NCBI RefSeq assembly: GCF_029433335.1
Contig: NZ_JAQTHX010000001.1
Span: 1,488,001-1,552,000, forward strand
Length of the DNA stretch: 64,000 nucleotides
Source: Bifidobacterium sp. ESL0745
GTDB taxonomy: Bacteria > Actinomycetota > Actinomycetes > Actinomycetales > Bifidobacteriaceae
Direction: 5' to 3'
Shown here: in pieces, positions 13,905-64,000 of the stretch
Layout: each line of letters opens with the position of its first letter
Numbering within the stretch: the stretch's first letter is position 1
Translations under genes and position numbers: made by a program
Notes under the pieces: model-generated
Told to the model about the DNA's origin: nothing
What the model saw: the letters and a program-made list of their open reading frames with translations, nothing else
Databases searched by the model: none

Positions 13905-14609
13905 TCAGAACAGACGAAGGCTGTCGTCGTCGGCGCCCTTCATGTCCTCGTAATCGAGGATAAGGCAATCGAAACCACGCTCCGTCGCCAGAACGCGAGC
14001 CTGCGGAGTGATGGTTTGGGCGGCAAACATGCCACGGACCGGAGCAAGCAGCGGGTCCTTATTCAAGAGCTTTACATAGCGGGTTAGCTGTTCGACGCCG
14101 TCGATGCCGCCGTGACGCTTGATCTCGATGGCGACGTGCTGGCCGTTGCCGTCGATGGCCATGATGTCGACCGGCCCTACAGCCGTCGGGTATTCGCGGC
14201 GCACAAGCTTCGCACCTTTGCCGATCCGTTCGATCTGCTGGGCCAGATAATACTGGAGGTGATCCTCTACGCCATCCTTGACGAGCCCGGGATCCTCTCC
14301 CAAATCGTAGGTTTCATCGGAATAGACATGCTGCACCGTCACTTCGAGCATGTCAGTCGACTTCTGCGCAGCTACGCGGAACACCTTCTCAGGAACTTCC
14401 TCCTCGGTCTCTTCGGCGTTGCTTTCCGGGATAACTTCCTTGATGGTGCAGGGTGCGGCCATCCAGTTGAGCGGTTTGTAGGAACCGAGTTCGGAGAAAA
14501 TCAACAGGCTTTGATCAGCTTTGATCATGAGTACTCGCTTGGCCACGGGCAACGAGGCATTGAGCCTTCCGGAGTATACGGCAGAGCAGTCAGCAACAAT
14601 AATTCGCAC
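13905..14609 (-). CDS. nucS: Mismatch endonuclease NucS/EndoMS
   Basis: A 234-residue homologue of NucS, the enzyme that cuts both strands at mismatches and substitutes for MutS/MutL in most actinobacteria. The N-terminal DNA-binding beta domain begins MRIIVADCSAVYSGRL. The C-terminal nuclease domain has a PD-(D/E)XK-like core: the aspartate in VGPVDIMAID and the E-x-K of VAIEIKRHGGIDGVEQL. The extreme C-terminus, DSLRLF, resembles the clamp-interacting peptide of the family. It lies downstream of the ATP synthase operon on the same strand, beyond that operon's terminator, and so has its own transcription signals. Confidence 0.93.
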   Translation of the reverse strand: MRIIVADCSAVYSGRLNASLPVAKRVLMIKADQSLLIFSELGSYKPLNWMAAPCTIKEVIPESNAEETEEEVPEKVFRVAAQKSTDMLEVTVQHVYSDETYDLGEDPGLVKDGVEDHLQYYLAQQIERIGKGAKLVRREYPTAVGPVDIMAIDGNGQHVAIEIKRHGGIDGVEQLTRYVKLLNKDPLLAPVRGMFAAQTITPQARVLATERGFDCLILDYEDMKGADDDSLRLF

Positions 14610-62576: not shown

Positions 62577-62860
62577 CAGAACCTCCTTTTCCGAAATCCG
62601 TGTCGTTTCAGTATACGCTTGGCAGGCGGCGTCAACGCATGGAAAATAGTCCATCCAGACCTCGTATTATAAGCAGCGGTCATCTCGAGAATTCTGCCCC
62701 TATCATCAACACCAAGCACAGACCAACGTTCAGAGCCGTCAGGTCTCAGCTTTGAATCTAACTTCGTGCGCCACGCATGTCTCACATCGTCATCACATAT
62801 ATCGGGATGACGCTGGTGGGTCCTCGGGTCGATCACCGGCTTTTCGTATGTTCCGTTCAT
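62576..62860 (-). CDS. Putative toxin of a type II toxin-antitoxin pair
   Basis: 94 aa. DDDVRHAWRTKL, the strand pair RWSVLGVDDRGRILEM and FHALTPPAKRIL recall small actinobacterial RNase-like toxins with a CopG-type antitoxin partner. The protein is strongly basic at its end (KRILKRHGFRKRRF). It is the first gene of a three-gene overlapping unit, toxin before antitoxin, which is less common than the reverse order. No known toxin name can be attached. Confidence 0.55.
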   Translation of the reverse strand: MNGTYEKPVIDPRTHQRHPDICDDDVRHAWRTKLDSKLRPDGSERWSVLGVDDRGRILEMTAAYNTRSGWTIFHALTPPAKRILKRHGFRKRRF

Positions 62861-63216
62861 GCATCAATTACACGCGCTTTGTCTACAGAAAGGCAAGCTA
62901 AAACGGGTGCTGTGGTCGGATGATAGAGGTTATCCACATTTGAGGCGTGTCGAGGGATAGGTGCTCAAATCATCCACAGACCTATACACAAATCGAAGAT
63001 AAGATTCACCATTATCCACAATCAGAAAAAGTCCGATTCGTTCGTGCGTAACGCTTGGAAACTGCTATACGAAAATCAGTCATATAAAACAGATAACAAT
63101 ATTTTGAGGGAATCGACGGTATTTATGTGTGTGTATGACCGATAAATCAGACAAATTAGTATACTGGTAAAAGCAAGAAGGATTCATACATTGGTGATAT
63201 GGGTGCGGAGGACATA
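62861..63216. other. Intergenic region between the toxin-antitoxin unit and the poly-C adhesin
   Basis: 356 bases, no gene seen. The middle is a cluster of DnaA-box-like sequences. The right part is AT-rich and should hold the adhesin promoter; a GGAGG ribosome-binding site lies just before 63217. Confidence 0.6.
62930..63020. promoter_or_regulatory. DnaA-box-like cluster at 40-42 bp spacing
   Basis: TTATCCACA occurs exactly at 62930-62938 and 63012-63020, with a one-mismatch copy TCATCCACA at 62970-62978. All three lie in the same direction, spaced 40 and 42 bp. A further weak copy (CTATACACA) is at 62982-62990. Confidence 0.6.
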
Positions 63217-64000
63217 ATGAAGGTCAAAGCTTGGGTGAGGGTAGTCTGCGGCTTGGTAGCCTGCGGACTTTCGCTTTCCTTATCGGGCACTGCACTGGCT
63301 TCCACCGACCCGACAGAATCCGGAAGAAGCCATAACTCCAGTACCCCCCCAGCACAATAACCTCAGGAAAACAGCAGCAAATAAGTCCTGAACAGTCACC
63401 GGCAGCATCGGAAAAGTCAGATACAACTGGCACAGAAACTCGACAAGTCAGTACACTAGAAGATTCAGAAGAACCATCAACGCAAAGCTACACGGTTCCA
63501 AATCTCATTGTCAATGGCGGCTTCGACTACCCGACTATCCCCGATTGGCTGGGCATGTCATGGGTGATAGTCGATCTGCTAAGTACAAAGTATGGCAACG
63601 ACACTGGGGGCTATTGGCACTACCTGTCTGAAATGAACAGATCAAAGTTCGGCTGGCATTCAACAGATACCGCGCATGGTTACGAAGAAATGGACTTAGC
63701 AAAATACGATAGTCCAGTATTCAACCAATACATAGATTCCATCGGCTCTGCACCGGGCTACATTGCTTATCAGGACGTTTCGGTAACCCCCGGGAAAACC
63801 TATCAGTGGCATCTACGCCAACTCAGTAACCATTTCGATGTCGACAATGTGGACAACATATTAATCGGTACACCCGCACAGGTAGGAACTGGAACCAGCG
63901 GAACAACTGTCCAGAACCACATTCGTAGAACCAGCATCAACGGAAAAGGGACCGATAGATCGGGAGATGTGGGATCAGCTATATCCACCGATAATGGAAC
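63217..64000 (+). pseudogene. Surface adhesin N-terminus, out of frame at a poly-C tract (runs off window)
   Basis: GGAGG precedes the ATG at 63217, which starts a signal peptide (MKVKAWVRVVCGLVACGL, then SLSGTALA). After 42 residues, seven C residues are met; the first frame stops at 63358-63360. One base shifted, the frame is open to the window end (about 216 codons), starting STITSGKQQQ, then VPNLIVNGGFDYP, FGWHSTDT, YIAYQDVSVTPGKTYQW and ILIGTPAQVG. This is the N-terminal carbohydrate-binding-like module of large bifidobacterial wall-anchored proteins. With eight (or five) C residues the gene would be in frame. Confidence 0.75.
63344..63350 (+). repeat. Poly-C tract (C7), candidate phase-variation switch
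   Basis: GTACCCCCCCAGC: seven C residues between the signal peptide and the mature domain of the adhesin. Length C7 is out of frame; C8 restores it. Confidence 0.85.

What the first reader, a model, noticed from the sequence alone, without database searches (positions are those of the whole stretch)
63217..64000. Poly-C tract places a surface adhesin in the OFF frame: candidate phase variation
A good ribosome-binding site and signal peptide lead into seven C residues, after which the frame stops within four codons. The frame one base over continues for more than 200 codons with an exported bifidobacterial adhesin module. Adding one C restores a single protein. Homopolymer slippage that switches bifidobacterial pilus genes on and off is known; here a C tract in a different type of adhesin may do the same. 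A sequencing error or a true pseudogene is also possible.
Basis: partly seen in the sequence, partly recalled or inferred. Interest (0 to 1): 0.82.

Follow-up and report, generated by a model that had tools for sequence, protein, structure and literature searches.

The report
Surface adhesin gene with slippery C-tract
A Bifidobacterium gene for an internalin-like cell-surface protein is interrupted only at a run of seven Cs, and four other surface genes in the same genome are interrupted in the same way at longer runs, so the bacterium probably switches a small set of surface proteins on and off by copying errors, a mechanism already known in its relatives.

Summary
A strong ribosome-binding site, ATG 63217 and a signal peptide lead into C7 (63344-63350), then TAA at 63358. 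The frame offset by -1 stays open for 918 codons, past the window end, and encodes an internalin-like LRR/Flg_new protein with an IPLTG anchor.

It is not isolated. The genome holds 17 C/G runs of 7 or more. Five lie between signal peptide and body of anchored LRR/DUF285 surface genes, all five out of frame. Of 19 genes of these families without such a run, 18 score a signal peptide in frame and the 19th probably has one. Orthologues of two companion genes carry runs of other lengths, one in frame. MutS was not found; NucS is present.

Replication-slippage phase variation is the best reading (0.6). Against it: C7 is the shortest run; the sister species' copy is a truncated remnant; 24 of 31 curated run-bearing genes share the -1 offset, which random switching does not predict but one-base under-calling or recoding would. 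No reads or sister isolates could be checked. It is a new member of a known kind.

The parts
63207..63211 (+). Shine-Dalgarno sequence GGAGG, 5 nt before the ATG
   Evidence: sequence
63217..63300 (+). start codon and 28-residue Sec-type signal peptide (ALA|S cleavage site by inspection)
   Evidence: crude hydropathy score 2.43
63217..63360 (+). short upstream ORF (47 aa) ending at TAA 63358-63360, just after the tract
63344..63350 (+). C7 homopolymer tract, the junction between the two frames
63351..63490 (+). Ser/Thr/Gln-rich linker in the body frame, directly after the tract (by inspection)
63336..64000 (+). first part of the body frame (-1 relative to the signal peptide); it continues outside the window to G000:C1:1554113 and encodes an N-terminal domain without a Pfam match, LRRs, LRR_adjacent, Flg_new and an IPLTG anchor

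Best explanation
This is a sortase-anchored, internalin-like LRR surface protein gene whose signal peptide is joined to its body through a C7 run. Errors in copying the run during replication shift the frame, so cells carry an OFF allele (signal peptide plus a few residues, then stop) or an ON allele (whole exported protein). The assembly shows an OFF allele. It is one of five such genes found in this genome. Shown here: the anatomy, the open body, the concentration of C/G runs at this position in this gene class, no MutS match with NucS present, and orthologues of two companion genes with other tract lengths, one in frame. Inferred: that the tract varies within a population, that the switch is reversible at C7, and that the protein is an adhesin.
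For: (1) The body is open for 918 codons with no second lesion. (2) Against the sister-species remnant dN/dS is 0.23 over 349 codons and 0.24 over 113 (gatA 0.05), so the protein was probably under purifying selection for most of its history. (3) Of 17 C/G runs of 7 or more in the genome, 5 sit between signal peptide and body of Flg_new/DUF285/LRR surface genes; the first 600 nt of the 24 such genes make up about 0.6% of the genome (binomial P about 5e-8). (4) 5 of 5 with a run have the signal peptide in another frame. Of 19 without, 18 have it in frame by the scorer, and the exception has an in-frame hydrophobic stretch further in. (5) Syntenic orthologues of companion genes keep the tract with other lengths: L077 G9 out of frame versus L230 G12 in frame; L076 G9 versus L125 G11, both out of frame. 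(6) No MutS_V match in the genome (11 of 14 control genomes ring); NucS is present, and NucS is reported unable to correct indels (passages of PMC8228993). (7) G-tract slippage was shown experimentally in B. breve pilus genes (PMC9187656), and length variation of one tract in a surface-protein gene by Sanger sequencing in Gardnerella (passages of PMC11287997).
Against: C7 is the shortest of the five tracts, and length-7 runs as a class are not concentrated at surface genes (1 of 7 in G000). The sister species' copy lacks everything between L002:3079 and 4702 (start region, signal peptide, tract, about half the body) and carries a frame break and a TAG. No orthologue of this gene with a tract was found, so no tract length can be compared for this gene itself; more distant homologues have the signal peptide in frame without a run of 7. 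Across 31 hand-curated tract genes in 8 genomes the states are 24 at -1, 5 in frame and 2 at +1; free switching predicts about a third each. Twelve of the 24 are one paralogous leader family and the genomes are related, but the skew remains.
Confidence: 0.6

Rival explanations
1. Assembly or base-calling error: the run is really in the in-frame length and was under-called, so the gene is simply intact.
For: 24 of 26 out-of-frame tract genes in the curated set show the same -1 offset, which is what a systematic one-base loss from an in-frame run would give. Penno et al. [quoted passage not shown]
Against: In G000 three length-7 runs inside other coding frames are read through in frame: C7 in the ribonucleotide reductase small chain, G7 in a C5-methyltransferase, and G7 close to the stop of a thioredoxin-like ORF; so is a C7 in a long ORF of G089. 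Two of the five G000 tract genes have the other offset (+1). An error would not explain why long runs sit at this position in this gene class.
Confidence: 0.17
2. A real but fixed frameshift: a pseudogene at an early stage, hit at the most indel-prone site, on the way to the loss already seen in the sister species.
For: The sister orthologue is a truncated, frame-broken remnant. C7 slips less often than C9-C11 (recalled general knowledge), so return to ON may be rare. Indels fall at homopolymers in any case.
Against: The 918-codon body has no other lesion. Four further genes in the genome have the same lesion at the same place, which is odd for unrelated decay, while genes of the class without a run are in frame.
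Confidence: 0.13
3. Recoding: the ribosome or RNA polymerase slips by -1 on the tract and makes some full-length protein from the sequence as it stands.
For: C_CCC_CCA fits the X_XXY_YYZ pattern of -1 slippery sites (recalled). The -1 offset is strongly over-represented, and in one paralogous leader family 12 of 12 genes examined in three genomes keep it although the run is C10 in two genomes and C9 in the third.
Against: No stimulatory structure stands out in the 90 nt after the tract (z -1.09). Two of five G000 tract genes need the other direction, and five genes elsewhere are in frame. In B. breve the productive change was shown at DNA level.
Confidence: 0.1

Closest known systems
B. breve UCC2003 sortase-dependent pilus G-tracts bbr_0113 and bbr_1889 (Penno et al. 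2022, PMC9187656; abstract and sections 12, 15, 21, 22 read)
   Same: Same genus; signal peptide and LPxTG body in two frames separated by a G/C run near the 5' end; translation start signals only on the upstream ORF.
   Different: There the run is G, 8-13 long in the survey table, in the first gene of a pilus cluster with its own sortase, and the main productive change is loss of a base. Here it is C7 in a single internalin-like gene without a neighbouring sortase, and the offset is of the other sign.
Homopolymer-tract surface genes of Gardnerella (mSphere 2024, PMC11287997; passages read)
   Same: Same family Bifidobacteriaceae (recalled); tracts at ORFs with InlB B-repeats and LPXTG sites; length variation of one tract shown by Sanger sequencing.
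   Different: Threshold of 8 bp or more; about 70% of G/C tracts there lie upstream of ORFs, while this one is inside the coding sequence after the signal peptide.
Neisseria meningitidis siaD poly-C phase variation (Hammerschmidt 1996; seen only as a citation and a passing mention in passages of PMC2686086; the C7 length is recalled)
   Same: Slippage in a coding sequence toggles expression; a short poly-C run (recalled).
   Different: A Gram-negative capsule enzyme, not an anchored adhesin; that species has MutS-type repair (a mutS mutant is mentioned in passages of PMC3447861).
Listeria class 1 internalins (InlA, InlB, InlH)
   Same: LRR of internalin type, LRR_adjacent, Flg_new repeat; sortase-type anchor.
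   Different: Far below the NCBIfam cut-offs (142.5 versus 1050 bits for InlH/InlC2); extra N-terminal domain; not known to be tract-controlled in Listeria (recalled).

Membership tests
Homopolymer phase-variable (contingency) locus | Homopolymer in the 5' coding region whose length sets the frame of an otherwise intact ORF | tested here: met
   C7 at 63344-63350; 918 open codons in the -1 frame
Homopolymer phase-variable (contingency) locus | Run long enough to be hypermutable (8 or more in the Gardnerella survey; 8-13 in Penno Table 1) | tested here: inconclusive
   C7 is one short; its four companions are C8, G9, G9, C10
Homopolymer phase-variable (contingency) locus | Tract-length variation among close relatives | tested here: inconclusive
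   No tract-bearing orthologue of this gene was found; met for companion genes L076/L125 and L077/L230
Homopolymer phase-variable (contingency) locus | Mixture of lengths in a clonal population and reversible expression | not testable with these tools
   No reads or cultures
Bifidobacterial pilus G-tract switch | First gene of a pilus cluster with a dedicated sortase | tested here: not met
   No sortase match falls in the 14 kb of L002; the six sortase matches of the genome lie elsewhere, the nearest about 150 kb away
Internalin-like surface protein | Internalin-type LRR plus LRR_adjacent | tested here: met
   LRR_4 66.7 bits (cut-off 27), LRR_adjacent 30.7 (21.8); internalin structures are the best PDB matches by sequence
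Internalin-like surface protein | Flg_new / B-repeat and sortase anchor | tested here: met
   Flg_new 55.4 bits, cut-off 27; IPLTG-TM-basic tail by inspection and hydropathy
Listeria class 1 internalin (NCBIfam NF033188/NF033189) | Score above the curated cut-off | tested here: not met
   142.5 of 1050 and 84.7 of 1600 bits

The most novel reading that the evidence does not exclude
In this group of bifidobacteria the leader and body of tract-bearing surface genes are held at a constant -1 offset (24 of 31 curated genes; 12 of 12 examined in one leader family despite C9 and C10 runs) because the run is a programmed recoding site. The 'OFF' genes would then make a low, steady level of full-length surface protein by ribosomal or transcriptional slippage, with DNA slippage as a second, heritable layer.
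Probability: 0.1. Interest if true: 0.75.

Novelty: new member of a known kind. Interest (0 to 1): 0.48.

Why it matters
If the tracts vary in living populations, a Bifidobacterium can present different combinations of at least five large LRR/DUF285 surface proteins. That would extend tract-controlled expression in this genus from pili to internalin-like surface proteins. A genome annotation would tend to list such genes as pseudogenes. It would also tie the absence of MutS-type repair to how easily such switches arise. The skew towards one offset makes a direct test between switching, recoding and under-calling possible.

Tried and rejected
Decayed gene: rejected as the default because the body has no second stop in 918 codons and dN/dS against the sister remnant is low; kept as a rival. 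A first dN/dS run on the larger remnant piece used a poor alignment (pN 0.51, ratio 0.50) and was replaced by one on the tblastn alignment. Internal restart: the first start codon of the body frame (63555) lies beyond the linker, and no good in-frame signal peptide follows it (score 0.98). Promoter/terminator scan of 62850-63500: none found. Pilus operon: no sortase nearby. Source of the sister MAG: no paper held 'JAGGHK' or 'B-bin1'.

How the 31 genes were chosen: by hand from classifier outputs. All runs of 8 or more listed were fetched for G000 (10), G082 (13), G085 (13), G090 (10), G093 (12), G083 (6), G084 (6), G087 (4) and G092 (2); only part for G088, G089 and G091. G086 and G025, which were also, and the short loci L086-L115 of that call were not examined, nor were runs in the rest of the genus. 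No curated gene came from G084, G087, G091 or G092. Kept although borderline: L116 (only 489 nt open downstream) and L231 (odd leader). Left out as weak, antisense or not surface-like: L117, L119, L121, L122 and L123, L236 and L242, L207 and others. L069 was left out because its leader is missing. The leaders of L134 and L135 were set by homology to L220; the automatic choice gave other starts and, the other sign. One search lists nine runs of 7 or more with long frames on both sides: L076, two in frame that look coding (L078 +, L203 C7), one offset methyltransferase-like case (L238, +1), and five others that I take as antisense or unclear (L078 -, L079 -, L202 +, L207 -, L232 -).

Full report
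WHAT IS THERE. The window is G000:C1:1488001-1552000, part of a 2.36-Mb genome in seven contigs. At the right end of the window a GGAGG box precedes ATG 63217. The ORF encodes a signal peptide, enters a C7 run at 63344-63350 and stops at 63358-63360 after 47 residues. The frame at -1 relative to it is open from 63336 to the window end and, in the continuation fetched as L002, to C1:1554113. After the tract it encodes 918 residues: a Ser/Thr/Gln-rich linker, an N-terminal domain without a Pfam match, LRRs, LRR_adjacent, one Flg_new domain and an IPLTG-TM-basic tail. The nearest solved structures by sequence are internalins, but the scores are far below the NCBIfam cut-offs for class 1 internalins. 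There is no second stop or frame break.

IS IT MORE THAN CHANCE. Runs of C or G of 7 or more are scarce: one match in the window against 9.3 in dinucleotide shuffles, and 17 runs in the genome, merged from 36 overlapping matches. I read 12 kb, or the available contig, around each. Five lie between a signal peptide and the off-frame body of an LPxTG-type surface gene: the window gene (C7), L070 (C10), L075 (C8), L076 (G9) and L077 (G9). The last four carry DUF285 domains (BspA-like, a recalled label) and an LPMTG motif; L076 and L077 also Flg_new at or just above the cut-off; the L075 DUF285 match is below the cut-off. A sixth run, L069 (G9), precedes a 1743-aa surface-like ORF whose 5' end appears displaced by an inserted element (my reading of the flanking sequence), and L084 (C8) is a possible signal-peptide gene fragment near a contig end. 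The others fall in or near other genes or between genes.

NATURAL CONTROL. Searches of the genome for Flg_new and DUF285, plus one LRR gene seen, give 24 distinct surface ORFs, two of them cut by a contig end. In the five with a C/G run of 7 or more at the 5' end, the signal peptide is in another frame. In 18 of the 19 without such a run the crude hydropathy scorer finds the signal peptide in frame. The exception, C2:69879, has an in-frame hydrophobic stretch after a longer N-terminus. Fisher's exact test on 5/0 versus 1/18 gives P = 1.4e-4. The first 600 nt of 24 genes are 0.6% of the genome, so 5 of 17 runs there has a binomial P of about 5e-8. Choosing the gene class after seeing the hits makes these values optimistic. 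Of the seven runs of exactly 7, only the window's is at such a gene.

IS THE CALL OF C7 CREDIBLE. Three length-7 runs inside other coding frames of G000 are read through in frame: in the ribonucleotide reductase small chain, in a C5 DNA methyltransferase, and close to the stop of a thioredoxin-like ORF. A C7 in a long ORF of G089 is also in frame. So length-7 runs are not generally miscalled, but four cases are few.

RELATIVES. The protein search matched 59 of 112 genomes of the genus, G000 included. The syntenic sister locus (L003 = L010, G082) keeps only the 3' part: similarity ends at L002:3079 and resumes at L002:4702, and the remnant has a frame break near residue 548 and one stop. dN/dS between the window gene and the remnant is 0.24 (113 codons) and 0.23 (349 codons), against 0.05 for gatA next door. 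The protein was therefore probably constrained for most of the time since the split, although the sister copy is now lost. More distant homologues, L012 over most of its length and L011 and L021 over parts, have a signal peptide in frame and no run of 7, so tract control is not general among them.

COMPANION TRACTS IN RELATIVES. L077 (G9, out of frame) and L230 of G093 (G12, in frame) lie in syntenic surroundings, with leader regions 79.5% identical over 239 nt. L076 (G9) and L125 of G082 (G11) are also syntenic, both out of frame, and their bodies have a dN/dS of 0.27, so a body out of frame in both genomes still looks constrained. In a third family the same position holds G10 in two G085 genes, out of frame, and G11 in a G090 gene, in frame. 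This is the best evidence that such tracts change length and frame in this group; it is between species, not within one.

RESULT AGAINST FREE SWITCHING. In 31 hand-curated tract genes from eight genomes the offset is -1 in 24, zero in 5 and +1 in 2. Twelve of the 24 are one leader family in G085, G089 and G090, with C10 in two genomes and C9 in the third, yet always -1. Random lengths would give about one third each. Shared ancestry, a bias towards contraction from an ON length, one-base under-calling by the assemblers, or recoding could all produce it; I cannot separate these. In G000 itself the offsets are mixed, three -1 and two +1, which fits neither uniform one-base under-calling nor a single recoding direction. 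No stimulatory RNA structure stands out after the C7 run (z -1.09).

REPAIR BACKGROUND. PF00488 (MutS_V) finds nothing in the genome while 11 of 14 control genomes ring. NucS is present, inside the window. A review states that NucS cannot correct indels (passages of PMC8228993; it does not mention Bifidobacterium). Slipped strands at such runs may therefore escape mismatch repair; whether bifidobacterial NucS behaves the same is inference.

WHAT IS KNOWN. In B. breve, G-tracts of the same layout control sortase-dependent pili, and a tract length that appears to allow pilus formation is enriched in mice (PMC9187656; abstract and four sections read). The survey table there lists runs of 8-13. 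In Gardnerella, runs of 8 or more accompany surface proteins with InlB B-repeats and LPXTG sites, and one tract was shown to vary (PMC11287997, passages). Four searches combining Bifidobacterium or Gardnerella with phase-variation, homopolymer and adhesin terms showed, in the rows listed (2 of 2, 15 of 91, 15 of 3,596, 10 of 36), no title or abstract start on tract-controlled internalin-like genes in Bifidobacterium; the library holds only openly licensed papers, so this is weak evidence of novelty.

VERDICT. The best reading is a phase-variable surface protein that belongs to a set of five in this genome. The C7 run may be at the low end of what slips usefully, and the switch itself is not shown. 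The kind of system is known; the set of LRR/DUF285 genes and the offset skew are the parts worth following.

Noticed in passing
window 13908-14270 (-): NucS (PF01939, 121 bits) lies in the window; no MutS_V match in the genome.
   Followed up: partly
L129-L133 (G085), L204, L205, L221, L222 (G090), L201-L203 (G089): Twelve large surface genes, several in rows about 6-8 kb apart, share a short leader (MSVI/MEVI...) that runs into C10 or C9 and then stops; the body frame is -1 in all twelve.
   Followed up: partly
L071:6001-6011 (G000:C1:172713-172723): G11 five bases before the apparent ATG of a Cys/Met-metabolism PLP enzyme, where it may act as or alter the ribosome-binding site.
   Followed up: no
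L238 (G084), G11 at about 4000: Methyltransferase-like sequence (by inspection) with long frames on both sides of a G11 run, offset +1; it may be a switchable methyltransferase.
   Followed up: no
L122 (G082), G12 at about 4000, - strand: A sequence resembling a beta-fructosidase (by inspection) changes frame at a G12 run in the sister MAG.
   Followed up: no
L069:5995-11241 and L084:5208-5215 (-): Two further tracts (G9, C8) lie close to what looks like the same inserted-element end (by inspection), one cutting a 1743-aa ORF with a weak SdrD_B match from its leader.
   Followed up: partly
L079:6001-6008: C8 just after the start of a small ORF; a 314-nt open frame follows in another frame. The neighbourhood looks phage-like by inspection only.
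   Followed up: no
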